Assembly (NCBI RefSeq): GCF_011742555.1
Contig: NZ_JAAQQR010000010.1
Location: forward strand, 62,001-126,000
Direction of reading: 5' to 3'
Length of the DNA stretch: 64,000 nucleotides
DNA from: Luteibacter jiangsuensis
Lineage (GTDB): Bacteria > Pseudomonadota > Gammaproteobacteria > Xanthomonadales > Rhodanobacteraceae
Shown here: positions 50,131 to 64,000 of the stretch, in pieces
How positions within the stretch are numbered: position 1 is the first letter of the stretch
Layout: each line of letters begins with the position of its first letter
Notes under the pieces: model-generated
The model's database searches: none
What the model saw: the letters and a program-made list of their open reading frames with translations, nothing else
What the model was told of the DNA's origin: nothing
Program-made: the position numbers and the translations under genes

Positions 50131-50910
50131 CTAGACCATCGCCGTGCCGGGCACGCCGTGCGAGAGCTCGCGCGACACATCCGCCGCGGCCGCGACCAGC
50201 GCGCGCGACGTGCCCTTCATATCGAGCTTCGCACCGCGCCGCTCGATGAACGGCACGGTGAGGGCGCATACCGCGTGATTGCTCTCAATGATCGGTGCCG
50301 ACAGATCGGTGACGCCATCGACGACCTCGCTGGGAATCGTGGCCAGTCCGGCCGCACGGATGGTCTTGATCGCGGCTTCGACCCGCGCGCGCTTCAGCGT
50401 CGGCTCGTGCTCCAGCATCGTACGAAACCAGCGCTCGCGCGTTTCGTCGGTTTGCCAGGCCAGGAGCACATAGCCAGAGGCCGAATGCGAGATCGGCCGG
50501 CGATGGCCCACGCGCACCACCAAGCCGGTTTCGCCAGGCGGGTCGACGCGTGCGATCACCACGATCTGCTCTTGCGACGGCACCACGAGGTGGCAGGACT
50601 GGTCGATTTCATCGGCCAGCCGATGCATCACGGGCATCGCCGTTTCGACGATATTGCGCACCGGCGGTTGCTCCATGCCGAGACGGAACAGGCGCGGCGT
50701 GATCGAGTAAGCGCCGTCGCCGTCGGCACGCGCTATGTAGTCGCGCTCCTCGAGTACCTGGAGCATCCGAAAGATCTCCCCGCGCGAACGGCCGACACCA
50801 TCGGAGATCTCCGCGATCGACAAAGGCTGGGTCGCCTTGGCGAGCAGTTCCAGGATGTCCAGGCCCTTGTCCAGGGCAGGAGCTCGATACTTTGGAGAGT
50901 CTGAAGGCAT
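50131..50910 (-). CDS. IclR-family regulator, likely fucose-regulon repressor
   Basis: This 259-residue regulator has an N-terminal winged HTH (residues 10-75: KGLDILELLAKATQPLSIAE, VGRSRGEIFRMLQVLEERDY) and the IclR effector domain (85-250: DQSCHLVVPSQEQIVVIARV, HSASGYVLLAW). It is divergent from fucP, with a 151-bp gap containing a motif that recurs at the fucose catabolic promoter. IclR members often control sugar-acid pathways, so it is the best candidate for the fucose regulator (inference). The ligand could be L-fuconate or 2-keto-3-deoxyfuconate. Confidence 0.88.
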   Translation of the reverse strand: MPSDSPKYRAPALDKGLDILELLAKATQPLSIAEISDGVGRSRGEIFRMLQVLEERDYIARADGDGAYSITPRLFRLGMEQPPVRNIVETAMPVMHRLADEIDQSCHLVVPSQEQIVVIARVDPPGETGLVVRVGHRRPISHSASGYVLLAWQTDETRERWFRTMLEHEPTLKRARVEAAIKTIRAAGLATIPSEVVDGVTDLSAPIIESNHAVCALTVPFIERRGAKLDMKGTSRALVAAAADVSRELSHGVPGTAMV

Positions 50911-50998
50911 GGCATTCCGTGGCGTTGGGTGTGCGTCGCTGCGGGAGTCTAGCGGGCCAAAGGGCGCCCGCATGTTGCACCGCAGCTTGTTATGTAGG

Positions 50999-51022
50999 TG
51001 AATATCGAGTTCATATTTGTAC
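50999..51022 (+). promoter_or_regulatory. Predicted fucose-regulon operator, copy A (fucP)
   Basis: A 24-bp AT-rich site starts TGAATATCG and ends TTTGTAC, 39 bp before fucP. It matches copy C at 17 of 24 positions and copy B at 14. A possible promoter (TTGTTA at 50987, 17 bp, TTCATA at 51010) overlaps it, which fits repression. Confidence 0.55.
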
Positions 51023-51061
51023 ACGACGGGGCCTGCCGTGTCACGGTTGAGGAGGGCGAGC

Positions 51062-52360
51062 ATGCAGCAACACACGCCGATCGCGGCGTCCCCTACGGGC
51101 TCTCTTGCGCGTACGCCCCTGCTTCCCCTTGTGCTGATCGTAAGCCTCTTTTTCCTTTGGGGGGTGGCGAACAACCTCAACGACGTGCTGGTGGCGCAGT
51201 TCAAGAAAGCCTTCACCCTTTCCGATTTCCAGGCGGGGCTGGTACAGAGCGCGTTCTATCTCGGCTATTTCCTGCTCGCGATTCCCGCCGGCATGTTCAT
51301 GCGCCGCTTCGGCTACAAGGCGGCAGTGGTGTTCGGCCTGGCGCTCTACGGCGCCGGCGCCTTGCTTTTCTGGCCGGCGGCGGCGACGGCGACGTATGAC
51401 ATCTTCCTCGCAGGCCTTTTCGTCATAGCGGCAGGCCTGGCTTTCCTCGAAACATCCGCTAACCCGTGGGTGACCTTGTTGGGCCCGCGCGAATCGGCGG
51501 CCTCGCGCTTGAACCTCGCGCAGGCTTTCAATCCCCTCGGTTCCATCACGGGGGTGTTGATCGGCCAGCACTTCATCTTCACCGGCGTGGAACGCACGCC
51601 GGCCGAACTCGCGGCGATGGATGTGGCGGCGCGCACCGCTTACATGAAGAGCGAAGCGGCCGCCGTGCAGATGCCCTACCTCCTCATCGGCCTGGGGGTG
51701 ATCGCGTGGGCCGTCCTCATCGTGCTTACGCGTTTCCCGCGAACGGCTGCCGAAGGTGACGGCAGCGACGTGGCGGAGCGGGGCGTACTCGGCCGTCTGT
51801 TTCGCGATGCCCGCTTCATGTCGGCCGTGCTGGCGCAGTTCTTCTATGTCGGTGCGCAGGTGTCGGTGTTCAGCTACATGATCCGTTATGCGCAGGCGAC
51901 CATGCCCGGTACCGCCGAGAAGACGGCGGCGAACTTCATCACCGCGGGCCTGCTCTGTTTCATGGCGGGACGGTTCGCGGGCGCCGCGATCATGAAATAT
52001 CTCCGGCCGGCCCACGTGCTGCGTACGTTCGCACTGGTCAACATCGCGCTGGCAGCGGCGGCGGCGTTCGTGCCGGGGCGGGTGGGCATCTATGCACTCG
52101 TGGCATCGAGCTTCTTCATGTCGATCATGTACCCGACGATTTTCGCCCTCGGCGTGGAAGGACGAAGCGATGCGGAGCGCAAACTCGGTGCCTCGCTGCT
52201 GGTGATGTCGATTGTCGGCGGCGCGGTGCTCACGGCGGCGATGGGCGCGGCGTCCGATCGGTTCGGTATCGCGCATGCCATGCTCGTTCCCATGCTGTGC
52301 TTCGTGGCGATCTTCCTGTTCGCCTGGCGCCGCACGAAGGGCAGGGAAGCCGTCGCATGA
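51062..52360 (+). CDS. fucP: L-fucose:proton symporter (FucP-type MFS)
   Basis: This 432-residue inner-membrane transporter has 12 predicted helices. The E. coli FucP hallmarks are kept: WGVANNLNDVLVAQFKKAF (proton-coupling Asp) and GLAFLETSANPWVTLLGP (substrate Glu). Length is close to E. coli FucP (438). The start is ATG at 51062 after GAGGAGG. Its stop overlaps the mutarotase start (ATGA). It would bring L-fucose across the inner membrane after the TonB receptor and the fucosidase have released and imported it. Confidence 0.93.
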   Translation: MQQHTPIAASPTGSLARTPLLPLVLIVSLFFLWGVANNLNDVLVAQFKKAFTLSDFQAGLVQSAFYLGYFLLAIPAGMFMRRFGYKAAVVFGLALYGAGALLFWPAAATATYDIFLAGLFVIAAGLAFLETSANPWVTLLGPRESAASRLNLAQAFNPLGSITGVLIGQHFIFTGVERTPAELAAMDVAARTAYMKSEAAAVQMPYLLIGLGVIAWAVLIVLTRFPRTAAEGDGSDVAERGVLGRLFRDARFMSAVLAQFFYVGAQVSVFSYMIRYAQATMPGTAEKTAANFITAGLLCFMAGRFAGAAIMKYLRPAHVLRTFALVNIALAAAAAFVPGRVGIYALVASSFFMSIMYPTIFALGVEGRSDAERKLGASLLVMSIVGGAVLTAAMGAASDRFGIAHAMLVPMLCFVAIFLFAWRRTKGREAVA

Positions 52361-52725
52361 GCTGGCAATGTTTCGCACTGGATCTGCACGACGATCCCGC
52401 TGTGATCGCGGAATACGAGCGTTGGCACCGTAGCGAGTTCGTGTGGCCAGAGGTCCTGCGCTCTATCCGCGAGGCGGGCATCCTCGACATGCAGATATTC
52501 CGGACCGGCAACCGGCTGGTAATGCTGATGCGGGTGGGCCCGGGTTTCGATGCGAAAGCCAAGGCGGCCGCCGATGCGGCGAACGAACGCGTGCAGGCAT
52601 GGGAGACGCTGATGTCCACGTTCCAGCGGCCGCTTCCGTGGGCGCAGGCCGGGCAGAAGTGGGTGCCGATGCAACGGATCTTCGACCTGGCGAGTTGTCC
52701 GGACGTGCGCGAAGACGCACCGTAG
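52357..52725 (+). CDS. L-rhamnose/L-fucose mutarotase (RhaM-type)
   Basis: This 122-residue cytoplasmic protein of the DUF718/RhaM family interconverts alpha and beta anomers of 6-deoxy sugars. The conserved His is in ERWHRSEFVWPE near residue 24, and the Trp-rich end (PLPWAQAGQKWVPMQRIFDL) is typical. Position next to fucP and the fucose enzymes indicates L-fucose as the substrate. This would give the pyranose anomer that the dehydrogenase uses. Translation is coupled to fucP. Confidence 0.9.
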   Translation: MSWQCFALDLHDDPAVIAEYERWHRSEFVWPEVLRSIREAGILDMQIFRTGNRLVMLMRVGPGFDAKAKAAADAANERVQAWETLMSTFQRPLPWAQAGQKWVPMQRIFDLASCPDVREDAP

Positions 52726-52744
52726 GTGCGGGTTCGATCCAAAG

Positions 52745-52814
52745 TGTGGGAAGCGCGCCGGCGGGTGGAGGGATAACGGCGGGGGGCCATTCACGCGCCG
52801 GCGCGCTTCTCACA
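52745..52814. terminator. 19-bp inverted repeat between convergent genes
   Basis: Arms TGTGGGAAGCGCGCCGGCG (52745-52763) and its near reverse complement (52796-52814, one G-T pair) are separated by 32 nt. It lies between the mutarotase and lldD, so it may act as a bidirectional transcription barrier. There is no long T tract. Confidence 0.6.
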
Positions 52815-52822
52815 ACAAACAG

Positions 52823-53965
52823 TCATCCATTCCAGAGAATGTCGCGTGGCACGCGCGTGGCGTCCAGCGCGCCCGTGAGGGCCATGGTGACGCTCAGCTC
52901 GCGGCGGATGATGTCGATCGCCTGGGTGACGCCGGCTTCGCCGCCCGCCCCGAGGCCGTAGAGGAAGGCCTTGCCGATGAGGCCGGCGCGAGCGCCGAGG
53001 GCCAGTGCCTTGAGCAGGTCCTGGCCGCTCAGGATGCCGCTGTCGAACAGCACCTCGGTGCCGCCGGTCACGGCATCCACGATGGAAGGAAGGACGTCGA
53101 TGCTCGCCGGTGCGCCATCCAGCTGTCGCCCTCCGTGGTTGGATACCACGATGGCGTCCACGCCGTGCGCGGCGGCCAGCTTCGCGTCCTCGGCATCCAG
53201 GATGCCCTTCACGATGAGCTTCCCCGGCCATAGCTCGCGAATCCAGGCCAGGTCGTCCCACGTGATCGTGGGATCGAACTGGGCCGCGATCCACTGCGCG
53301 AGCGTGGTAAGGCTGTCGGCGCCCTTGATATGGCCGTCGAGGTTGCCGAACGAGCGACTGGGCGCGCGCAGGACGTTCCAGGCCCAACGCGGCTTGCTGG
53401 CGATGTCGAACAGATTGTGCAGCGTGACCTTGGGCGGCACCGACAGGCCATTCTTGATCTCGCGATGGCGCTGCCCCTGCACGGTGAGATCGGCCGTGAC
53501 CATCAGGGCCGAGCAGTCGGCGGCGCGTGCGCGCCGGATCAGCTCGCGGGTGAAACCGCGATCCCGCATCACGTACACCTGGAACCAGAAGGGCACGTCG
53601 GTCGCCGCGCGCACCTGCTCGATCGAGCAGATCGATACCGTGCTGAGGCAGAAGGGAATGCCGGCTTTCGCAGCCGCGCGCGCGCCGTGAATCTCGCCGC
53701 TTCCGTGCTGCAGTCCCGCCATGCCGGTGGGAGCGATGGCGAGCGGCATGCTCACGGGCTGGCCCACGATGGTGGTGGCGAGCGAGCGATGGTCCACATT
53801 GCGCATCACTCGCTGGCGAAAGCGCAGGCGTTCGAATGCGCGGCGGTTCTCGCGCAAGGTGGTCTCGTCATAGGAGCCACGGTCCGCGTACTCGAAGAAC
53901 GCCCGCGGCACGCGGCGACGCGCGAGTTCGCGCAGGTCGGCGATGTTTGTGACCGGCGCGGCCAT
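52823..53965 (-). CDS. lldD: FMN-dependent L-lactate dehydrogenase
   Basis: This 380-residue alpha-hydroxy-acid oxidising flavoenzyme has AFFEYADRGSYDETTLREN near residue 22, PLAIAPTGMAGL near 80, the catalytic His in VVSNHGGRQLDGAP near 275 and FMN-phosphate binding in LFDSGILSGQDLLKAL. Length fits membrane-associated LldD. It is the last gene of the fucose operon, 4 bp after the dehydratase. Since the pathway ends in pyruvate plus L-lactate, this enzyme would oxidise the L-lactate to pyruvate and feed electrons to the respiratory chain. Confidence 0.93.
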   Translation of the reverse strand: MAAPVTNIADLRELARRRVPRAFFEYADRGSYDETTLRENRRAFERLRFRQRVMRNVDHRSLATTIVGQPVSMPLAIAPTGMAGLQHGSGEIHGARAAAKAGIPFCLSTVSICSIEQVRAATDVPFWFQVYVMRDRGFTRELIRRARAADCSALMVTADLTVQGQRHREIKNGLSVPPKVTLHNLFDIASKPRWAWNVLRAPSRSFGNLDGHIKGADSLTTLAQWIAAQFDPTITWDDLAWIRELWPGKLIVKGILDAEDAKLAAAHGVDAIVVSNHGGRQLDGAPASIDVLPSIVDAVTGGTEVLFDSGILSGQDLLKALALGARAGLIGKAFLYGLGAGGEAGVTQAIDIIRRELSVTMALTGALDATRVPRDILWNG

Positions 53966-53969
53966 GTCG

Positions 53970-55289
53970 TCAGCCGTCGCTGGCCATGGGGATGCCCTGC
54001 CAGACAATGCCGCCTGGATACAGATGGTCGCGCACCGATACAGGGTGCATCTGCGCGGAGAATCCCGGCGCCGTGGGCGCCATGTAACGCCCGTTGACGA
54101 TGCGTACCGGATCGACGAAGTGTTCGTGCAGGTGGTCCACGAACTCGATGGCACGATCCTCTTTCTTGCCCGTGATCGCCACGAAATCGGCCATGGCCAG
54201 ATGCTGCACCAGTTCGCACAGGCCCACGCCGCCGGCATGCGGGAAGACGCGGACGCCGAACTCCGCGGCGAGGAGCAGGATGGCGAGGTTTTCGTTTACG
54301 CCGCCCACGCGCGCGGCGTCGATCTGCACGAGGTCCACCGCGCCGGCCTGGAACAGCTGCTTGAACAGCACGCGGTTCTGGCCATGCTCGCCAGTGGAAA
54401 TGGGCGTCGGCGCCACGCCCTGGCGAATGGCCGCGTGGCCCAGCACGTCGTCCGGGCTCGTCGGTTCCTCCACCCAGGCCAGGCCCACGCTTTCCAGCGG
54501 CTTCAGCCATTCGATAGCGCTGCCCACGTCCCAGCGCTGGTTGGCGTCGACGGCGATGGCGATATCGGGTCCTACCGTGGCCCGGGCGAGCCGGCAGCGA
54601 CGAATATCGTCTTCCAGCCGCAGGCCCACTTTCAGCTTGATGGTGCGGAATCCATCCGCAACCGCCTGGCGTGCCAGCCGCTGCATTTTCTCGTCGGAGT
54701 AGCCGAGCCAGCCGGGCGAGGTCGTGTAGGCCGGATAACCTTCGGCTTCCAGTTGCGCGATACGCGCGTGCTTGTGCGGTTCCGCCGCCCGCAGGATCTC
54801 GAGTGCGCGCTCGGGTGTGAGGGCATCCGTGAGGTAGCGGAAGTCGACCTGATCGACGATCTGTTCCGGCGTCATGTCGGCGATGAAGCGCCACAGCGGC
54901 TTGCCCGCACGGCGCGCCGCCAGATCCCACGCGGCATTGATCACCGCGCCGATGGCCATGTGCATCACGCCTTTCTCGGGGCCCAGCCAGCGCAGCTGCG
55001 AGTCGCCGACGAGTTCCCGTGCGAAGTCGCCCAGGCGCTGTACCACGTCGTCGACATCCCGGCCGAGCACCATCGGTTCGAGGGCTGCCAGTGCGGCGGT
55101 CTGCACGTCGTTGCCGCGCCCGATGGTAAAGACGAGCCCGTAGCCGGCGAGGCCGTCCGGGCTGTCGGTGCGCATCACCACGTAGGCCGCGGAATAGTCA
55201 GGGTCCGGATTCATGGCATCCGAGCCGTCATGGTCGATCGACGTGGGGAAGCGCACGTCGAACGTGTCCAGCGCCGTGATCGTCACCAT
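53970..55289 (-). CDS. L-fuconate dehydratase (enolase superfamily)
   Basis: This 439-residue enzyme removes water from L-fuconate to give 2-keto-3-deoxy-L-fuconate. The catalytic KxK is FRTIKLKVG with Lys near 218 and 220. Metal ligands are in [19 protein letters not shown] and STGEHGQNR, and the general acid His is in [10 protein letters not shown]. The N-terminus has the FucD segment [21 protein letters not shown]. The X. campestris L-fuconate dehydratase has the same layout and almost the same length. It overlaps the preceding hydrolase by 7 bp. Confidence 0.95.
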
Positions 55290-56143
55290 GCGCGCCTGTC
55301 TCCATGTGCCACCACGTCCTGGCGCTGCCTGCCCAGGCCTTCGATACCCAGCTCGATCACGTCGCCCGGCTTGAGGTACGTGGGCGGCTTCAATCCCAGG
55401 CCGACCCCCGCGGGAGTGCCGGTGCTGATGACGTCGCCGGGCATGAGGGTCATGTAGCGGCTGATGTAGCTCACCAGTTGCGCCACGCCGAACACCATGG
55501 TTCGCGTGTTGCCGTTCTGGTAGCGATGTCCGTTCACCTCGAGCCAGAGGGAGAGATTCTGCGGATCGGGTACTTCGTCGCGCGTGACCAGCCACGGGCC
55601 GATCGGGCCGAATGTGTCGCAGCTCTTGCCCTTCACCCACTGGCCACCGTGCTCGAGCTGGAACGCGCGCTCCGAGAGATCGTTGATGACGGCGTAGCCG
55701 GCAACGTGCTCCATGGCCTTCTCGACGGGGACGTCGCGGGCCACTTCGCCCACGATCACGCCCAGTTCCACTTCCCAGTCCGTTTTCACGGAATCGCGGG
55801 GAATCACCACGGTGTCGTTGGGCCCGCCGATGGCGGTGGTGGCCTTCATGAAGAGCACGGGCTGCTCGGGCACAGGTGCGCCGGTCTCGGCGGCGTGATC
55901 GGCGTAATTCATGCCCACGCAGAGCATCTTGCCGATGCCCGCCACCGGTGCGCCGAACCGCGGGTTCCCCGGTACCAGGGGCAAGCTCGCCGGATCGAGT
56001 TCGGCGAGGCGGCGCAGGCCGGCGTTGCCGATGGCTGCGCCGGCAAGGTCGTCGATGATGGCAGACAGATCGCGGAGCCGGCCTTCGCCGTCGACGAGGC
56101 CGGGCTTTTCCTGGCCGGGTGCACCGTAGCGGGCGAGTTTCAT
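55283..56143 (-). CDS. 2,4-diketo-3-deoxy-L-fuconate hydrolase (FAH family)
   Basis: This 286-residue fumarylacetoacetate hydrolase-fold enzyme has [20 protein letters not shown], metal-binding Glu residues in [11 protein letters not shown], and Asp in NDLSERAFQ, with [15 protein letters not shown] toward the C-terminus. In the X. campestris-type pathway this step hydrolyses 2,4-diketo-3-deoxy-L-fuconate to pyruvate and L-lactate. Context (dehydratase downstream, dehydrogenase upstream) makes that assignment strong. It lies 9 bp after the SDR gene. Confidence 0.92.
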
Positions 56144-56152
56144 CGCATGTCC

Positions 56153-56899
56153 TCAGTTCGACCAGCCGCCGTCCACGACATGGACAGTGCCGGTGGTAAA
56201 CGACGATTCGTCGGAGGCCAGATAGACGGCCAGTGCGGCGATTTCGCGCGGATCGCCCAGGCGTCCCATGGGCTGGCGGGCAGTGAAACCGCGCCACGCG
56301 GCCTCTTCGTCGCCGCCCATGGCACGGACGCGATCGGCGAGGGAAGGCGTCTTCACCGTGCCCGGACAGATCGCATTGCAGCGGACACCGCGGGCCACGA
56401 AGTCGGCGGCGATGGATCGCGTGAGGCCGATGACGGCGGCCTTCGTGGCGCCGTAGGCAAAGCGGTTCGGGACGCCCTTGATGCTGGATGCCACGGAAGA
56501 CATGTTCACGATGCTGCCGGCGCCGCGTTCGAGCATGCCCGGGAGCACGGCGCGGCACGTGTGGAACATGCTGTCGACGTTGATGGCGAACGAGCGTCGC
56601 CAGCTCGCCTCGTCCGTGTCGAGGATGGTGCCGGCGTGCACGTAACCCGCGCAGTTGAACAGGATGTCGATGGCGCCTGCGTCGGCGACGAGGGCGGCGA
56701 TCGCCGCCGGGTCGGTGACGTCGAGAATCCGCGTGCTTGCCGATGCGCATTCCTCGCCCAGCGATGTGAGGCTGGCCGCATCGATGTCCGTCGCGACCAC
56801 CGTCGCGCCTTCGGCGGCGAAGGCGAGTGCCGTCGCGCGGCCTATGCCCGCGCCTGCCGCTGTGATCAGGGCGCGCTTGCCTGTCAGCCGGCCGCTCAT
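56153..56899 (-). CDS. 2-keto-3-deoxy-L-fuconate dehydrogenase (SDR)
   Basis: This 248-residue NAD-dependent short-chain dehydrogenase has Rossmann [19 protein letters not shown] near residue 14 and NCAGYVHAG near 85. The catalytic Ser-Tyr-Lys is in [20 protein letters not shown] near 130-150. It oxidises the C4 hydroxyl of 2-keto-3-deoxy-L-fuconate to the diketo acid. The specific substrate is inferred from the complete pathway around it. The start is the ATG at 56899, 46 bp after the lactonase stop. Confidence 0.92.
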
Positions 56900-56945
56900 G
56901 GGTGTGGCCCGCAGGGAAGGGAAACCATGGGCGCGAACATGTGCG

Positions 56946-57803
56946 TCATCGCAAGATCCTCGAAGCGGCATGTGCCGGCGCGTGGCCGGCAAGGGAATAG
57001 ACGGCGACGGCGTTGCCGCCAAAGACGGCGGCCTCCGCGAGCGGCGCATGGCGCTGCACGAAGGCGCGCGCACAGGATTGCCATGCGTCGTAAGTGGCGT
57101 GCGTGGTGAGCACCGGCCAGTCGCTGCCCCAGATGAGGCGATGGGGGCCGAACGCGTCGAACAGGTGTGCCACATAGGGTTCCAGCGCATCCGGTTCGGG
57201 TGCGGCGCCCGCTAATGTGAGCAGGCCGGAGAGCTTGCAGTACACATCGGGCATCTGCGCGAGCCGCGCCATCGACGTTGCCCACTCGGCAAAGCCACGG
57301 CCGGCGATATCCGGCTTTGCCGCATGGTCGATCACCGTGCGCAGGCCCGGATGTCGCGTCAGGCGTTCGGAGAGCGCCCGCAGGTGGCGGCTATCGACCA
57401 GCGCGTCGAATACGAGCTCGCGTTCCCGCACGTGCTCGAACGCGGCGTCGAGCGCCGGCAAGGCCAGCCATTGCGTATCCGGAATGTCCTGCACCATCGG
57501 CCGGATGCCGCACAGCAGGCCGCCGCCGTCCGCCACAAGCCAGTCCAGACGCGAGGCGACATCGAGCGCCTCCATGTCCACCCATCCCACGACCCCGAGC
57601 ACACCGGGATCGTTGCGGGCGATGTCGAACAGGAAACGGGTCTCCCGCTCGTCGGGCGCAGCTTGCACGAGGATGCAGGGGTCGGGGTCGCCCGGAAAGT
57701 CGCCAGGCAGGAACGCGCGGCGAAGCGTCTCGGGGGCACTGCGCAGCCAGTCGTAGCGCAGCCGGGAAGGATCCCAATAGTGGCGATGCGCGTCGACGAT
57801 CAC
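56946..57803 (-). CDS. L-fucono-1,5-lactonase (amidohydrolase family)
   Basis: This 285-residue TIM-barrel lactonase of the amidohydrolase-2 group has the metal motif VDAHRHYWDP at the start, VIDHAAKPDI near 160, YCKLSGLLTL near 190 and the catalytic Asp in RLIWGSDWPVL near 235. It opens L-fuconolactone to L-fuconate. The start is GTG at 57803, overlapping the dehydrogenase stop (GTGA); this gives the normal N-terminus without an extension. Confidence 0.92.
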   Translation of the reverse strand: MIVDAHRHYWDPSRLRYDWLRSAPETLRRAFLPGDFPGDPDPCILVQAAPDERETRFLFDIARNDPGVLGVVGWVDMEALDVASRLDWLVADGGGLLCGIRPMVQDIPDTQWLALPALDAAFEHVRERELVFDALVDSRHLRALSERLTRHPGLRTVIDHAAKPDIAGRGFAEWATSMARLAQMPDVYCKLSGLLTLAGAAPEPDALEPYVAHLFDAFGPHRLIWGSDWPVLTTHATYDAWQSCARAFVQRHAPLAEAAVFGGNAVAVYSLAGHAPAHAASRILR

Positions 57804-58813
57804 GGCGTGGGCACCGTGGGATCGATCAGGCCTTCCTTGCGAAGCGCCGCCCAGGTCGCCGGCGGCACCGGCGCGCGCTGGCGGTGCAGCGCCGCGTCCA
57901 CTTCGGCAACGGAGCGCAGGCCGCATACGACGGCGGATACGGCGGGGTGGGCGAGGGGAAACTGCAAGGCCGCCGCGCCAACTTCCGCGCCCGTGCGATG
58001 ACAGATGTCGTAATAGCGCTGCGCGCGGGCGATCACCTCGGGGGAGGCCGGCGCATAGTTGTAGGTGGCACCGGGCCCCTCTTCGGCGCCGAGCAGGCCG
58101 GAGTTGTACGGCCCGGCAACAAGCACCGATACGCCCGTCGCGGCCGCGCGCTCCATCACGGCCTTGCTCGCGTCCTGCTCGAACAGCGTGTAGCGCCCGG
58201 CCAGCATGATGACGTCCAGCGGAAACCGCGGCATCACCTCGAGGCACACGGCTTCCTCGTTCACACCAATGCCAATGGCGCCGACGAGTCCTTCCTCGCG
58301 CATGCGCGCCATTTCCGGAAGCGCCTCGTCCAGGGCCTGGGCCAGCACCTGCGGATGCCGGTCGCCATGCGTGAGCGCGCCGATGTCATGGAGGAAAAGC
58401 ATGTCGACATGCTCGAGCCGCAGCCGGCGAAGACTTGCTTCCAGACTGCGCCGCACGCCCGCGCGGCTGTAGTCGAAGCGCGCGATGCGACCGTCGACGG
58501 CGAATCCGTCGTCCTGGCCGCGGCGACCCGCGGCATCTTCGATGATTCTTCCGACCTTGCTCGAGAGTGTGTAGCTCGCGCGCGGCAGCCCGGCAAGCAC
58601 GTGTCCAAGTCGCGATTCGCTCAGCCCGAAACCGTAATAGGGCGCCGTATCGAAGTGGCGGATGCCGCCTTCCCAGGCATGACCGATCGCCCGCGCAGCT
58701 TCGGCCTCGTCCACCTCGCCATAGAGATTGCCCACCGGCGCTCCGCCGAACGCCAACGGCGACAGGGGCGTGCCGCGCGGTGGGGCTGATAGGCCGGCTT
58801 TCGACAACGACAT
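57800..58813 (-). CDS. L-fucose 1-dehydrogenase (aldo/keto reductase)
   Basis: This 337-residue oxidoreductase first oxidises L-fucose at C1 to the lactone. The AKR tetrad is present: Asp and Tyr in FDTAPYYGFGLSE near 50-55, Lys in LSSKVGR and His in LFLHDIG. AKR-type D-threo-aldose/L-fucose dehydrogenases share this layout. It is the first gene of the minus-strand fucose operon, with two copies of the predicted operator in the 290-bp gap before the TonB receptor. The ATG at 58813 was chosen because the upstream frame crosses that promoter region. Confidence 0.92.
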   Translation of the reverse strand: MSLSKAGLSAPPRGTPLSPLAFGGAPVGNLYGEVDEAEAARAIGHAWEGGIRHFDTAPYYGFGLSESRLGHVLAGLPRASYTLSSKVGRIIEDAAGRRGQDDGFAVDGRIARFDYSRAGVRRSLEASLRRLRLEHVDMLFLHDIGALTHGDRHPQVLAQALDEALPEMARMREEGLVGAIGIGVNEEAVCLEVMPRFPLDVIMLAGRYTLFEQDASKAVMERAAATGVSVLVAGPYNSGLLGAEEGPGATYNYAPASPEVIARAQRYYDICHRTGAEVGAAALQFPLAHPAVSAVVCGLRSVAEVDAALHRQRAPVPPATWAALRKEGLIDPTVPTP

Positions 58814-58862
58814 CGAGGCTCCCTGGGATTGGCCGCTCGTCTCTGGCGACACTGACCAGATA

Positions 58863-58886
58863 TGGATATTACGTTTATATGTGAAC
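58863..58886 (-). promoter_or_regulatory. Predicted fucose-regulon operator, copy C (dehydrogenase operon)
   Basis: Read on the plus strand, a 24-bp site starts TGGATATTACGTT and ends ATGTGAAC, 50 bp before the dehydrogenase ATG. It matches copy A at 17 and copy B at 16 of 24 positions. Confidence 0.55.
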
Positions 58887-58980
58887 TTGTCCAGCGGCAA
58901 GCGTCTCTCCCTCACGAAAATGCCCGGAGACTTGTTTTTTTTTCGCGCCGCGTCGCAACTTGAATCGCCCGGAACATATC

Positions 58981-59004
58981 TGAATACTTCGTTCGCCAGT
59001 GAAC
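58981..59004 (+). promoter_or_regulatory. Predicted fucose-regulon operator, copy B (TonB receptor)
   Basis: A 24-bp site starts TGAATACTTCGTT and ends CAGTGAAC, 100 bp before the receptor ATG. It shares TG-ATA, CGTT and GTGAAC with copy C at the same spacing. Confidence 0.55.
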
Positions 59005-59103: not shown

Positions 59104-61797
59104 ATGAAGATCAGCAAGACCGTGCTTTGCGCGAGCATCCTGTATGCCCTCGCCGCAGTGACCCATGCGCAGGATGCAGCGCCCGCCGGGGCGGACAAGC
59201 CGAAGACGGCGCAGGAAAAAGCCGCCGAAAAACAGGCGCAGCAGCTCCAGGAGATCACCGTCACCGGCTACCGGGGAAGCCTGGAGAAGGCCATCGACGT
59301 GAAGCGCAACGCGAACGCCGTGGTCGATGCCATCAGTGCGACCGACATCGGCAAGTTCCCCGACACCAATGCCGCGGAGTCGCTGTCGCACCTCCCCGGC
59401 ATCACTGTGGACCGCCAGTTCGGCGAGGGCGAGAAGATCAGCGTCAACGGCACCGATGCCGCCCTGAACCGTGTGCTCCTGAACGGCCAGACCATCGCGT
59501 CCGGCGACTGGGGCGGCAACCCCACCGACACCAGCGGCCGCACGTTCAATTACTCCCTGTTGTCGCCCGAGATCATCGGGTTGATGGAAGTGTACAAATC
59601 GCCTGAGGCCCGCATCGACGAGGGCAGCATCGGCGGTACCGTGATCATCCACACGCGCAAGCCGCTGGATCTGCCGGCCAACACCCTGCGCGGCTCGCTT
59701 GGCTACAACTACAACGACCGCTCGAAAGACGGCAATCCGCGGGGATCGGCCTTGTGGAGCTGGAAGAACGCCGATAGCACGTTCGGCTTCCTGACCAGCG
59801 TCACGCACGACAAGGAAGACCTCTCCCGTGCGGGCATCGAGTTCTTCGGTTACACCACGGGTGCCAACATCACGGGTAATCCCCGCGTGACCGGCGACCC
59901 GGACTATGCCAACGCGAAGATCCCTGTGGGCATCAACAGCGCGTACTTCCAGCAGGAGCGCGAGCGCAACGGCATCCAGTCCGCGTTGCAATGGCGTCCC
60001 GACGAAAAGAACGAGTTCAACCTGACGGGGCTCTACGTCAAGGGCAAGTACAACAACTTCAGCGAGTCGCGCTATGTCTGTCCGGGCTGCGGCGACCTCA
60101 ACAAGCTGACGGACATCAACGTCAACAACGGCTACATCACGTCCGGTACCGTTTCGTCCACTACCGGTAACGGCCAGCCCTACGCCGAGCTGGACGCGAA
60201 CTATCGCAAGACCGAGGTCTCCACCAAGAGCATCAACCTGCGCCACGACTTCAACGGCGACGCATGGGTGTTCACCAGCCAGGTGGGCTACACCTCCGCC
60301 AGCGGCGGCAAGGATCCGGAATACCTGATGAAGTACCTGCTGCAGAATGGCGGTTACGACTTCTCGTACGACGGCCGCAATACGGGCGTGAACTATCAGA
60401 ATGGTTCGGCGGCCAACTGGGGCCTGCCGGGTTCGCCCGCCAACTCGCCGCCGGGCGACACATCCTTGCCGGGCCAGAACCAGGCGGGCGGCATTTATTA
60501 CGAAACCACGAAAGACCGCGAGCGCTACGCGCAGTTCGATGCCACCCGCGATCTGGAATGGGGCCCCATCAACCAGATCCAGATGGGCGTGAAGTACACC
60601 AACCATTTCAACGGCACCAACTCGCGCGGCAACCGCATCAACACCACCGATCCGGTATCGCTGCTCGACTTCGACCCGGGCAGCACGCCGGGTGGCCTGT
60701 TCGACGGCCTGCATGCGAGCGGCGACCTCACCGACTGGCCTACGGCCAGCAAGGGCGCCGTGGTGTCGTACCTCAATGGTCAGCCGCAGGGGCCGTACAA
60801 CATCAACTACCCCGCGACGTTCGGCGTGGCCGAAGTGACCAAGGACGCCTACCTCCAGGTGAACTACCAGGGCGGCCCGTGGCGCGGCAACGTGGGCGTT
60901 CGCTATGTCGACACGAAAGACACGTCCACCTATTACGTGAACAGCGACGGCGGCACTTACAACCGCGTCTCGGGCACCACGCATTATTACAAGCCGCTGC
61001 CGTCCTTCAACCTGGCCTACGATATCGACGACGACAAGGTCGCGCGCCTGTCGGTGGCCAAGGTCATCGCCCGGCCGCGCTACGGCGACCTCGCCGGCGC
61101 CACATCCCTCAGCGGCGCCAGCACCGGCAACTTCACCGCCAGTGCCGGCAATCCCAACCTGAAGCCTTACCAGTCGACCAACTTCGACGTTTCGGCGGAG
61201 TGGTACTTCGCGCCGGCCAGCCTGCTTTCCGTGGAAGGCTTCGTGCGCAAGATCGACAGCTATATCGTCACGACCACGTCGGAACGCACGATCACCGATC
61301 CGACGACAGGACAGACCAACCTGTACTCGGTGACGTCGCCGGTGAATGCGTCCAATGCCAAGGTGTCCGGCCTCTCGCTGATCTACCAGCAGGACCTCGG
61401 CTACGGCTTCGGCATCCAGACCAACTACACGTATAGCAAAGCCACCACCCATGCCGATGCCGCCGGCGACAAGCTCAACCTGCCGTACCTGTCGAAGAAC
61501 ACCATCAACATCATTCCGTACTACGAGCACGGCCCGTGGTCGGCCCGCATCAACTACAGCCGCCGCTCGCCGTACTTCACCCAGGTGGGCCGCCTGAACT
61601 CCAACGTGTTCGCCGATGCGTACAAGGAACTGGATCTCAGCGCCTCGTACCAGATCAACGCGTGGGCCGGCATCACGCTCAGTGCCACCAACCTTCTGGA
61701 TTCCACGTACTACCAGTACGCCGACATCAAGTACGCTCCGATCGGCGAGTACAAGAGCGGCCGTACCTATTCGGTCTCGATGAACTTCAAGCTTTAA
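59104..61797 (+). CDS. TonB-dependent outer-membrane receptor, fucoside uptake
   Basis: This 897-residue receptor has a signal peptide (KTVLCASILYALAAVTHAQ), then an Ala/Lys-rich linker and a TonB box (QEITVTGYR near residue 50). A plug domain follows (about 55-170: DTNAAESLSHLPGITVDRQF, GEGEKISVNGTD, IDEGSIGGTVIIHTRKPLDL). A 22-stranded barrel runs to the end, which closes SVSMNFKL with Leu rather than the usual Phe/Trp. It is a proteobacterial TonB receptor of the TIGR01782 type, often carbohydrate-specific. Position at the head of a fucosidase operon suggests import of fucosylated oligosaccharides. The ATG at 59104 fits the signal peptide. Confidence 0.93.
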   Translation: MKISKTVLCASILYALAAVTHAQDAAPAGADKPKTAQEKAAEKQAQQLQEITVTGYRGSLEKAIDVKRNANAVVDAISATDIGKFPDTNAAESLSHLPGITVDRQFGEGEKISVNGTDAALNRVLLNGQTIASGDWGGNPTDTSGRTFNYSLLSPEIIGLMEVYKSPEARIDEGSIGGTVIIHTRKPLDLPANTLRGSLGYNYNDRSKDGNPRGSALWSWKNADSTFGFLTSVTHDKEDLSRAGIEFFGYTTGANITGNPRVTGDPDYANAKIPVGINSAYFQQERERNGIQSALQWRPDEKNEFNLTGLYVKGKYNNFSESRYVCPGCGDLNKLTDINVNNGYITSGTVSSTTGNGQPYAELDANYRKTEVSTKSINLRHDFNGDAWVFTSQVGYTSASGGKDPEYLMKYLLQNGGYDFSYDGRNTGVNYQNGSAANWGLPGSPANSPPGDTSLPGQNQAGGIYYETTKDRERYAQFDATRDLEWGPINQIQMGVKYTNHFNGTNSRGNRINTTDPVSLLDFDPGSTPGGLFDGLHASGDLTDWPTASKGAVVSYLNGQPQGPYNINYPATFGVAEVTKDAYLQVNYQGGPWRGNVGVRYVDTKDTSTYYVNSDGGTYNRVSGTTHYYKPLPSFNLAYDIDDDKVARLSVAKVIARPRYGDLAGATSLSGASTGNFTASAGNPNLKPYQSTNFDVSAEWYFAPASLLSVEGFVRKIDSYIVTTTSERTITDPTTGQTNLYSVTSPVNASNAKVSGLSLIYQQDLGYGFGIQTNYTYSKATTHADAAGDKLNLPYLSKNTINIIPYYEHGPWSARINYSRRSPYFTQVGRLNSNVFADAYKELDLSASYQINAWAGITLSATNLLDSTYYQYADIKYAPIGEYKSGRTYSVSMNFKL

Positions 61798-61816
61798 GCC
61801 GAGGGGAGTGTTACCC

Positions 61817-63439
61817 ATGCTGCGACGACTGGCCTGCTTCGTGACTGCGGCACTCATCGGAGGCGTCGCGAACGCCGGCCAGGCGACCGCCCCCACCGCG
61901 GGCAGCATGTCGCCCGAGGCGCAGGACATGGCATGGCAGAAAGCCGCCGCGAGGTTCGCGCCGGAACGCAGGGCCATTCTGGATCACGTGCACAAGGACG
62001 TGGCGGACGGCCCGTTCCGGCCCGACTGGGCTTCGCTGAAGGCTTACCGCTCGCCTGCGTGGTACGACGACGCGAAGTTCGGCATCTTCATCCACTGGGG
62101 TGTCTACTCGGTGCCGGCCTTCGGCAGCGAGTGGTACTCGCGCAACATGTACAAGCAGGGCAGCAAGGAGTTCGCCCATCACGTCGCCACCTATGGGCCG
62201 CAGTCCCGATTCGGCTACAAGGACTTTGTGCCGATGTTCAAGGCCGAGCACTTCGACGCGGATGCCTGGGCGGCGCTGTTTCGCGAAGCCGGTGCGCGCT
62301 ATGTGGTGCCGGTGGCCGAACACCATGACGGCTTCGCCATGTACGACTCGAAGCTGTCGGACTGGACTGCGGTGAAGAAGGGCCCCAAGCGCGACGTCAT
62401 CGGCCTGCTGGCGAAGGCGGTCCGGGGGCAGGGTATGCACTTCGGTGTTTCGTCGCACCGCGCGGAACACGACTGGTTCTTCGACGGCGGGCGGCACTTC
62501 GATTCCGACGTGAACGACCCGTCCAATGCCGAGCTCTACGGGCCAGCGGTGGACCACCTCAGCGTGCGCGACGAGAACCTCGCGGACGACTGGACCTATG
62601 TCTCGCAGGCGTGGCTGGACGACTGGCTGGCGCGCACGACGGAATTGATCGACGACTACCACCCGGACCTGATCTATTTCGACTGGTGGATCGGGCACCC
62701 GACCTTCCGCAACACCTTGCCGACCCTGCTCTCGTACTACTACAACGAGGGCAGCAGGCGCGACGGCGTGGTGGTGAACTACAAGCTGGGAGACCTCCCC
62801 GAGGGCGCGGGCACGCTGGATATCGAGCGCGGCCAGCTCACCGGCATCCACCCCACCCACTGGCAGACCGACACCTCGATCAGCAACGAATCCTGGGGCT
62901 ACATCGAGCACGATACCTACAAGTCGCCCACCTTCATCATTCACCTGCTGGCCGACGTGGTGAGCAAGAACGGCAACCTCATGCTCAACATCGGGCCGCG
63001 CGCGGATGGCACGATCCCGCAAGGTGCGCAGGATACGTTGCGCAGCATCGGCCGCTGGCTGACCACGAACGGCGAGGCCATCTACGGCAGCAAGCCGTGG
63101 CGCGTGTACGGCGAAGGTCCCACCGAGGTGGTCGGCGGTACGTTCCAGGACACCAAGACCAAGCCCTATACGGCGAAGGATTTCCGTTTCACCACCGGCA
63201 ACGGAAAACTCTATGCGATCGAGTTGGGCTGGCCCGCGAAGGGTGCCGCCACGATCACCTCGATCAAGCCCGCCGACAAGGTGACACGCGTGGAACTGCT
63301 CGCGGACGGCAGTAACCTGCCGTTTACCCAGGATGCCGGCGGCCTGCACCTGCGTCTTCCCTCCCAGCCCGTCGGCAGCGATGCCTATGTGTTCCGCATC
63401 ACCCTGGCGACGGCGAACCCCACCAAGGTCCCCCGATGA
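61817..63439 (+). CDS. Alpha-L-fucosidase, GH29
   Basis: This 540-residue exported retaining glycosidase releases L-fucose from glycans. A signal peptide (ACFVTAALIGGVANAGQATA) is followed by a GH29 barrel (KFGIFIHWGVYSVPAFGSEW near 85, VAEHHDGFAMYDS near 165). The nucleophile Asp is in PDLIYFDWWIGH near 290, and the MLNIGPRADGTIP end of the barrel is near 395. A C-terminal beta-sandwich follows. The start is ATG at 61817 with GAGGGGAG 8 bp upstream; the GTG at 61808 would bury that SD. It is 19 bp after the receptor and overlaps the next gene by 4 bp. Confidence 0.95.
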   Translation: MLRRLACFVTAALIGGVANAGQATAPTAGSMSPEAQDMAWQKAAARFAPERRAILDHVHKDVADGPFRPDWASLKAYRSPAWYDDAKFGIFIHWGVYSVPAFGSEWYSRNMYKQGSKEFAHHVATYGPQSRFGYKDFVPMFKAEHFDADAWAALFREAGARYVVPVAEHHDGFAMYDSKLSDWTAVKKGPKRDVIGLLAKAVRGQGMHFGVSSHRAEHDWFFDGGRHFDSDVNDPSNAELYGPAVDHLSVRDENLADDWTYVSQAWLDDWLARTTELIDDYHPDLIYFDWWIGHPTFRNTLPTLLSYYYNEGSRRDGVVVNYKLGDLPEGAGTLDIERGQLTGIHPTHWQTDTSISNESWGYIEHDTYKSPTFIIHLLADVVSKNGNLMLNIGPRADGTIPQGAQDTLRSIGRWLTTNGEAIYGSKPWRVYGEGPTEVVGGTFQDTKTKPYTAKDFRFTTGNGKLYAIELGWPAKGAATITSIKPADKVTRVELLADGSNLPFTQDAGGLHLRLPSQPVGSDAYVFRITLATANPTKVPR

Positions 63440-64000
63440 AACGACGGATTCTCCTGCTTGCCTGCCTGCTCTGGCTGCCCCTGGCCGCCTTCGCCAAGGC
63501 GCCGGTCGCGTTGTTCTACATGATGAACACGCAGAAATCGATCGCCTCGCTCGAAGCCCACGCCGATAAGATCGATCTGCTCGTACCCACCTGGTACGGC
63601 GTGGACGAGCACGGGCTGGTTTCCGGCGGCCCCAACGATTACGTGCTGGATCTGGCGAAGAAGCACCGCCTTCCCGTGATGCCGATCATCTCGGCGGGCG
63701 GCGACCGGGCGAAGTTCCATGCGCTGCTCGGCGACGAGACGGCGAAGAAACACATGATCGACTCGATGATCGACGAAGCGAAGGAGCACGGCTATACCGG
63801 CTTCCAGTTCGACTTCGAGAACATCGCATGGACGGATCGCGATGCGCTCACGCTCTTGACGAGGCAGACCTACGAAGCACTGCATAAGCATGGTCTGCAA
63901 CTCACCATGGCCGTGGTGCCCAATGCGCCGGGACACGCAGGGGAGGGCGCCTTCGGCAAGTGGATGTGGGAGTACTGGCGTGGCGCGTACGATCTGAAGG
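63436..64000 (+). CDS. Exported GH18-family glycosidase, 3' end cut by window
   Basis: The first 188 residues are visible. A signal peptide (RRILLLACLLWLPLAAFAKA) is followed by a GH18-type barrel start (VALFYMMNTQKSIASLEAHA, LLVPTWYGVD) and the catalytic strand GFQFDFENIAW near residue 125, with the D-x-E pair of GH18 enzymes. The style resembles YaaH-like and endo-beta-N-acetylglucosaminidase members more than true chitinases. Coupled to the fucosidase by ATGA, it may cut N-glycans or similar glycans that carry fucose (inference). The gene continues beyond the window. Confidence 0.85.
   Translation, partial: MKRRILLLACLLWLPLAAFAKAPVALFYMMNTQKSIASLEAHADKIDLLVPTWYGVDEHGLVSGGPNDYVLDLAKKHRLPVMPIISAGGDRAKFHALLGDETAKKHMIDSMIDEAKEHGYTGFQFDFENIAWTDRDALTLLTRQTYEALHKHGLQLTMAVVPNAPGHAGEGAFGKWMWEYWRGAYDLK

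What the first reader, a model, noticed from the sequence alone, without database searches (positions are those of the whole stretch)
50999..59004. A shared 24-bp operator-like motif in front of all three fucose transcripts
Sites at 50999-51022 (fucP), 58863-58886 (dehydrogenase operon) and 58981-59004 (TonB receptor-fucosidase) align without gaps. Pairwise identities counted by eye are 17, 16 and 14 of 24. The shared frame is TG-r-ATA at 1-6, GTT at 11-13, and TG(a/t)AC at 20-24. It occurs at the promoters of the genes that act on fucose, and an IclR gene sits next to one site. This suggests a single fucose regulon, not yet named to my knowledge.
Basis: partly seen in the sequence, partly recalled or inferred. 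Interest (0 to 1): 0.72.

Follow-up and report, generated by a model that had tools for sequence, protein, structure and literature searches.

The report
IclR-type fucose regulon operator
The three DNA stretches in front of this soil bacterium's fucose genes are real, conserved landing sites, most likely for the neighbouring IclR-type regulator, so one switch appears to control fucose import, breakdown and release from sugar chains.

Summary
The sites are where stated, with 17, 16 and 14 of 24 identities; 0 of 300 shuffles reach that. A profile built from fucP promoters of other genera ranks the three sites 1, 2, 3 of 127,914 positions; the third is weak on that profile alone.

The 24-mer is truncated. 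The operator is about 33 bp: 13-bp inverted arms around 7 bp, or two palindromes centred 19 bp apart. Two order relatives carry perfect arms, ATGCAAATATAAA-N7-TTTATATTTGCAT.

The IclR protein (50131-50910) is the likely reader. IclR and fuconate dehydratase co-occur (64 of the 66 genomes with either). The operator model hits 51 of 65 IclR+ and 1 of 168 IclR- genomes. Fucose operons lying elsewhere still carry it. The HTH changes (GRSR to GYSK) in the two genera whose operator differs.

Operators overlap or abut promoters in several cases, so repression is inferred. Binding, repression and effector are untested. A new regulon of a known kind (compare Campylobacter FucR).

The parts
50990..51022 (.).
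   Evidence: Top hit of the fucP-only profile from other genera, 51.4; all-class profile 41.3; 33-bp frame read
58854..58886 (.).
   Evidence: Rank 2, score 5.3; all-class profile 22.8
58972..59004 (.).
   Evidence: Rank 3, score -10.9; all-class profile 20.7
50131..50910 (-). IclR-family regulator, proposed reader of the operators
   Evidence: PF09339 HTH_IclR 51.8 bits and PF01614 IclR_C 72.7 bits, both above cut-off
51062..52360 (+). fucP, L-fucose:H+ symporter
   Evidence: TIGR00885 435.5 bits, cut-off 280.4
57800..58813 (-). Aldo/keto reductase, presumed L-fucose dehydrogenase, first gene of the operon
   Evidence: PF00248; substrate inferred from context
56946..57803 (-). Amidohydrolase, presumed L-fuconolactonase
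   Evidence: PF04909; best NCBIfam match L-fucono-1,5-lactonase at 177 bits, below its cut-off of 400
56153..56899 (-). SDR, presumed 2-keto-3-deoxy-L-fuconate 4-dehydrogenase
   Evidence: PF13561; closest solved chain 8y11, an SDR, 317 bits; substrate inferred
55283..56143 (-). FAA hydrolase, presumed diketo-acid hydrolase giving pyruvate and L-lactate
   Evidence: Closest solved chain 8gsr, L-2,4-diketo-3-deoxyrhamnonate hydrolase, 342 bits; NCBIfam match 431 bits, below cut-off 500
53970..55289 (-). L-fuconate dehydratase
   Evidence: 759 bits to 2hxt/1yey, L-fuconate dehydratase
52823..53965 (-). FMN L-lactate dehydrogenase, last gene of the operon
   Evidence: NF008398 425.2 bits, cut-off 376
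59104..61797 (+). TonB-dependent receptor
   Evidence: TIGR01782 753 bits, cut-off 310
61808..63439 (+). GH29 alpha-L-fucosidase
   Evidence: PF01120 356.9 bits
58866..58893 (-). Promoter-like TGGACA-N16-TAATAT of the catabolic operon; spacer and -10 inside operator 2, -35 just outside
   Evidence: 1 found, 0.1 expected; kept in 5 of 6 genus members read

Best explanation
The three sites are operators of one L-fucose regulon, bound by the IclR-family protein encoded at 50131-50910 (proposed name FucR). Each operator is about 33 bp: two 13-bp inverted arms around 7 bp (in order relatives ATGCAAATATRAA-N7-TTYATATTTGCAT), which also reads as two short palindromes centred 19 bp apart, as expected for two dimers or a tetramer on one face of DNA. 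Without fucose the protein sits on the promoters of fucP, of the non-phosphorylating catabolic operon and of the TonB receptor-GH29 transcript and blocks RNA polymerase; a pathway intermediate, most likely 2-keto-3-deoxy-L-fuconate, releases it. Shown by sequence: sites, conservation, symmetry, co-occurrence, promoter overlap at one window promoter and at relatives' receptor promoters. Inferred: IclR as the binder (strong), tetramer (moderate), repression (moderate), effector (weak). The confidence given is for the operator being the IclR protein's and for one fucose regulon.
For: Profile from fucP promoters of other genera ranks the three sites 1-3 of 127,914. IclR and FucD each in 65 of 233 genomes, 64 shared. 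Operator model: 51 of 65 IclR+ genomes, 1 of 168 IclR-. In 11 of 11 newly fetched regions with the AKR gene, 9 of them with FucD 10-50 kb from iclR or on another contig, the best hit lies upstream of the AKR gene. HTH 65-67% identical to the window's in g2/g24, which have variant operators, against 79-94% elsewhere; GYSK in 8 of 8 of these, GRSR in 53 of 53 other family proteins read, window included. No other regulator gene lies between 50131 and 63439. Promoter overlap.
Against: No binding data. Operator 3 is weak by itself. In genus g6 a receptor-side site was found in only 1 of 6 fetched AKR regions, and weakly (12.1). The g2/g24 change may be a single evolutionary event. The spacing fits neither published IclR consensus (4-6 mismatches at best). 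IclR and the fucose genes are neighbours in most genomes, so their co-occurrence is partly linkage. No promoter-like match was found for fucP or the receptor in the window.
Confidence: 0.88

Rival explanations
1. Same operator and same IclR protein, but the protein activates, or both activates and represses, as some IclR-family members do (recalled).
For: No convincing core promoter was found for fucP or the receptor in the window, which can mean activator-dependent promoters; operator 1 ends 40 bp before the fucP start codon and its promoter is unknown.
Against: The catabolic-operon -10 and spacer lie inside operator 2; in 19 of 22 receptor-side sites of relatives a TTGC-type promoter ends at the operator's edge; Campylobacter FucR is a repressor (PMC12566272, passages).
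Confidence: 0.2
2. The sites are operators of another transcription factor encoded elsewhere that co-occurs with the fucose genes.
For: Binding was not tested; the half-site spacing does not fit the two published IclR consensuses.
Against: HTH and operator change together in g2/g24; a second IclR paralogue in G145, beside a GH29 gene, also has a strong operator (41.1) next to it; the one IclR- genome with a hit has it about 1.2 kb from another IclR gene.
Confidence: 0.08
3. The shared motif is a promoter element (sigma-factor hexamers) and not an operator.
For: The sites lie at promoters and are AT-rich.
Against: The element is a 33-bp dyad, sits at different offsets from the recognisable promoters, occurs 3 times in the genome in the loosened frame and is hit in 1 of 168 genomes without IclR.
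Confidence: 0.03
4. Chance similarity of three AT-rich promoter stretches.
For: Site 3 alone is not significant with the fucP-only profile.
Against: 0 of 300 shuffles reach the triple; conservation across family and order.
Confidence: 0.01

Closest known systems
FucR (Cj0480c) of Campylobacter jejuni
   Same: IclR-type regulator divergent from a fucose locus with fucP; represses it and binds its promoter in EMSA (PMC12566272, passages).
   Different: No operator sequence appears in the passages I read ('binding site' 0, 'motif' 2 occurrences); a different gene set; orthology to the window protein was not tested.
IclR-family group 1, group 2 and tandem operators (PMC8222616; passages and sections 13 and 15)
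   Same: Half-sites with inverted symmetry; tandem palindromes 18-22 nt apart are reported for 94 orthologous groups, and here the spacing is 19.
   Different: Half-site spacing fits neither GKTYCRYW3-4RYGRAMC nor TGRAACAN1-2TGTTYCA (4-6 mismatches at best).
FucR of E. coli and Bacteroides (DeoR/other type)
   Same: Control fucose genes (as described in PMC12566272).
   Different: Different regulator family; E. coli FucR acts through fuculose-1-phosphate of the phosphorylating pathway.
TtgV of Pseudomonas (solved structures 2xrn, 2xro)
   Same: IclR fold (56 bits to the window protein); tetramer on a long operator (recalled).
   Different: Controls an efflux pump (recalled), not sugar use.
Predicted FucR regulons of Halomonas and others in microbial mats (PMC5507952, section 12 read)
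   Same: Same non-phosphorylating pathway; FucR sites predicted in a figure.
   Different: The regulator family of that FucR is not stated in the text I read; other taxa.

Membership tests
IclR-family transcription factor (the protein) | N-terminal HTH_IclR and C-terminal IclR_C domains above curated cut-offs | tested here: met
   PF09339 51.8 bits (cut-off 22), PF01614 72.7 bits (cut-off 24)
PcaR/PcaU/PobR subfamily | TIGR02431 score above curated cut-off 284.75 | tested here: not met
   106.5 bits
KdgR | NF011671 score above curated cut-off 275 | tested here: not met
   74.6 bits
IclR group 1 / group 2 operator consensus | GKTYCRYW3-4RYGRAMC or TGRAACAN1-2TGTTYCA in the promoters | tested here: not met
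   Best plus-strand matches need 4-5 (group 1) and 5-6 (group 2) mismatches
IclR tandem-palindrome operator | Two palindromes with centres 18-22 nt apart | tested here: met
   Centres at 6.5 and 25.5 of the profile, 19 apart
Fucose regulon (single regulator, several fucose transcripts) | Same operator at transport, catabolic and fucosidase promoters, conserved in relatives | tested here: met
   the receptor-side site is weak or missing in genus g6
Fucose regulon (single regulator, several fucose transcripts) | Regulator binds the sites and answers to the pathway | not testable with these tools
   Needs EMSA/footprint and expression data
FucR of Campylobacter jejuni | Orthology to Cj0480c | not tested
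   The Campylobacter sequence was not fetched

The most novel reading that the evidence does not exclude
An order-wide IclR regulon with an operator type outside the two published IclR consensuses: a 33-bp dyad (13-7-13) read by two dimers, whose HTH and half-sites have changed together (GRSR to GYSK), and which in this genus commands a wider glycan-harvest set (fucosidase, a GH20 and/or ShlB-type transcript, a further TonB receptor) through a 2-keto-3-deoxy-L-fuconate signal.
Probability: 0.4. Interest if true: 0.55.

Novelty: new member of a known kind. Interest (0 to 1): 0.42.

Why it matters
It gives a function, a target set and a DNA site to an IclR regulator found in 65 of 233 genomes of the family (E 1e-50) and, at a looser E 1e-40, in 19 genomes of other families among the 299 sampled from the order. 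It offers a natural series (GRSR/GYSK helix start against operator variants) for learning how IclR proteins read DNA, and it predicts further members by site alone. It is a regulon found by eye and confirmed by footprinting, but the kind of system is well known.

Tried and rejected
One search covered a mis-registered pattern (seven letters for the first box), so its two hits mean nothing. I tried to fit the sites to the published IclR group 1 and 2 consensuses; the spacing does not fit. A second block, GYTGCRNYGCRNCTTG, next to operators 1 and 3 looked like another regulator's site; its core TTGCRNYGCRNCTTG has 5 matches in the genome, one at fucP, against 4 for the reversed control, and in relatives its TTGC coincides with the -35 of the receptor-side promoter, so I set it aside. 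The covariance model R1 reported only operator 1 and the site near 135 kb in the own genome at E 10 or better, not operators 2 and 3; I presume this is because it does not allow for the GC-rich background, and I did not use it to rank them. A whole-genome ranking with my own profile was not possible. In one search three order-level rows (L169, L172, L173) were translated on the wrong strand; one search replaces them.

On checking, the -35 lies just outside the operator, and the extra site lies between two divergent genes, of which the ShlB-type one is shared by G000 and G108; both statements are mended and the probability of the novel reading was lowered from 0.45 to 0.40 for the second.

Genera g1, g2, g24 were left out of the fucP training set (46 of 59 fetched fucP regions used). 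Of 50 clustered sites 4 weak or divergent ones were left out of R1 (46 used). Of 42 AKR regions outside the genus 41 gave at least one site and 22 gave two; L066 was a 14-base stub. Those are in-sample for the all-class profile; one search gives scores with the fucP-only profile. Of 68 IclR matches listed, 60 were fetched; of 17 in the second family of the order sample, 13 were fetched as regions.
Full report
What is there. The window holds a fucose locus of a Luteibacter-like bacterium: a named Luteibacter jiangsuensis contig carries the same genes in the same order with 89% IclR identity. From left to right: an IclR regulator (50131-50910, minus), fucP (51062-52360, plus), a six-gene operon on the minus strand (aldo/keto reductase, fuconolactonase-like amidohydrolase, SDR, FAA hydrolase, L-fuconate dehydratase, FMN L-lactate dehydrogenase; gaps of at most 46 bases by coordinates), and divergently a TonB receptor and a GH29 fucosidase followed by the start of a GH18 gene. 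The dehydratase matches solved L-fuconate dehydratases at 759 bits and the FAA hydrolase a solved diketo-deoxyrhamnonate hydrolase at 342 bits; the substrates of the reductase, SDR and amidohydrolase are inferred from context. The set fits the non-phosphorylating pathway reported for Xanthomonas campestris (PMC5507952, section 12 read).

The observation. Coordinates, sequences and identities are right. The frame loosened to TGNAC occurs three times in the whole genome, only at these sites. Across 23 genomes of the genus it occurs 15 times: 13 in the six genomes that carry IclR, all at the three orthologous places; one in a contig fragment with the receptor and reductase genes in an 80%-complete draft (G113, L117); one unrelated (G106, best profile score in its locus -16).

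Prediction from other genera. I aligned fucP promoters of 46 loci outside the window's genus and outside two divergent genera and scanned the window. They scored 51.4, 5.3 and -10.9. Shuffled windows gave a best score of -11.8 on average and 0.9 at most; column-permuted profiles gave best scores up to 8.8 and third-best up to -9.1. So on this profile site 1 is beyond every control, site 2 beyond the shuffles only, and site 3 not significant by itself. With 109 sites of all promoter classes, still without the genus, the three sites give the top seven hits, counting both strands and shifted registers, and the best unrelated place scores 2.3.

The real operator. The conserved unit is longer than 24 bp. 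Its profile has symmetry centres at 6.5, 16.0 and 25.5: two short palindromes 19 bp apart, together one dyad of two 13-bp arms and a 7-bp middle. In 13 loci of a second family of the order, beside the same iclR-fucP pair, the arms match 13 of 13 in two (ATGCAAATATAAA-N7-TTTATATTTGCAT) and 7 to 12 of 13 in the other eleven; in the window they match 7, 8 and 6 of 13.

Who reads it. IclR (E 1e-50) and FucD (E 1e-120) each occur in 65 of 233 family genomes, 64 shared; the exceptions, G004 and G006, are drafts of 280 and 530 contigs. The operator model hits 52 of 233 genomes at E 0.01 or better: 51 of the 65 with IclR and 1 of the 168 without. The 14 misses are G104 (found at E 0.023) and the 13 genomes of g2 and g24. 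Many positives are in-sample for the model; the genus g1 and the IclR- genomes are not. The exception, G092, has its site about 1.2 kb from another IclR gene. In all 11 newly fetched regions with the AKR gene, 9 of them with FucD 10 to 50 kb from iclR or on another contig, the best hit lies within about 350 bp upstream of the AKR gene. Genera g2 and g24 have variant operators (for example GTTTCATGGGTGGA-N7-TCCATATACGCAAC). Their HTH is 65-67% identical to the window's against 79-94% in the other genera, while the rest of the protein (52%) is about as divergent as in several canonical genera (53-55%), and the helix start reads GYSK in 8 of 8 against GRSR in 53 of 53 other family proteins read, window included, and GRSR in 12 and GRSK in 1 of 13 of the second family. 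This ties protein to site, though it may be one evolutionary event.

How it likely works. A promoter-like TGGACA-N16-TAATAT for the catabolic operon has its spacer and -10 inside operator 2 and its -35 just outside, and is kept in 5 of 6 genus members read. In 19 of 22 receptor-side sites of relatives a TTGC...TA promoter ends at the operator's edge, against about 0.04 expected per slot. This geometry suits a repressor. No promoter-like match was found for fucP or the receptor in the window. Campylobacter FucR, also IclR-type, represses its fucose operon, and L-fucose did not release it in vitro (PMC12566272, passages). XynR of E. coli (IclR-type, recalled) answers to a 2-keto-3-deoxy acid (PMC13279387, abstract). 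I therefore favour 2-keto-3-deoxy-L-fuconate as effector, weakly.

Reach of the regulon. In this genome one further site (R1 E 0.87; all-class profile 25.8, above operators 2 and 3) lies on the same contig 14 kb past operator 3, outside the window, between a GH20 hexosaminidase and a divergent ShlB-type outer-membrane gene. In G108 a weaker site (15.9) lies between a glucokinase gene and the same ShlB-type gene, so the target of this site is open. In two congeners strong sites (37.9 and 31.0) lie in front of another TonB receptor, in one of them beside a BNR-repeat gene. In genus g6 the receptor-side site was found in only 1 of 6 fetched AKR regions. A regulon for fucosylated glycans is a reasonable reading, not a shown one.

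Relation to what is known. The protein is an IclR-family member and below the curated cut-offs of PcaR/PcaU/PobR and KdgR. The operator has the tandem spacing reported for many IclR proteins but fits neither consensus. None of seven full-text searches listed a paper that, as far as I read, names this regulon (four papers opened, the rest seen as listings); the supplement of PMC8222616 may hold it. Verdict: real, well supported, a new regulon of a known kind.

Noticed in passing
L111 (G000:C1:133507-136533), site at L111:1493-1528; outside the window: A further operator-like site (25.8) between a GH20 hexosaminidase gene and a divergent ShlB-type two-partner-secretion gene; in G108 (L127) a weaker one sits between a glucokinase gene and the same ShlB-type gene.
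   Followed up: partly
L118:1500-1535 and L119:1500-1535: Strong operators (37.9, 31.0) in front of a second TonB receptor in G108 and G103; in G108 a BNR-repeat (sialidase-like) gene precedes it.
   Followed up: partly
L108:16162-18981 and L057: G145 carries two IclR paralogues; the one beside a GH29 gene has its own strong operator (41.1), the other sits at the usual fucose locus.
   Followed up: partly
L105:31-182 (G079): Two extra operator-like hits (35.8 and 24.1) near the end of a GH3-like gene (read by eye), whose target gene lies outside the fetched stretch.
   Followed up: no
window 50974-50989 and 58947-58962: Block GYTGCRNYGCRNCTTG next to operators 1 and 3 (0 and 1 mismatches), recurring beside the operators in relatives; its TTGC coincides with the -35 of receptor-side promoters in relatives.
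   Followed up: partly
window 63436-63999: A GH18-type gene starts at the end of the fucosidase gene and runs off the window, probably the same transcript.
   Followed up: no
window 52823-53965: An FMN L-lactate dehydrogenase closes the fucose operon, which fits L-lactate as an end product; it was not found next to FucD in some relatives, for example L040 and L072.
   Followed up: no
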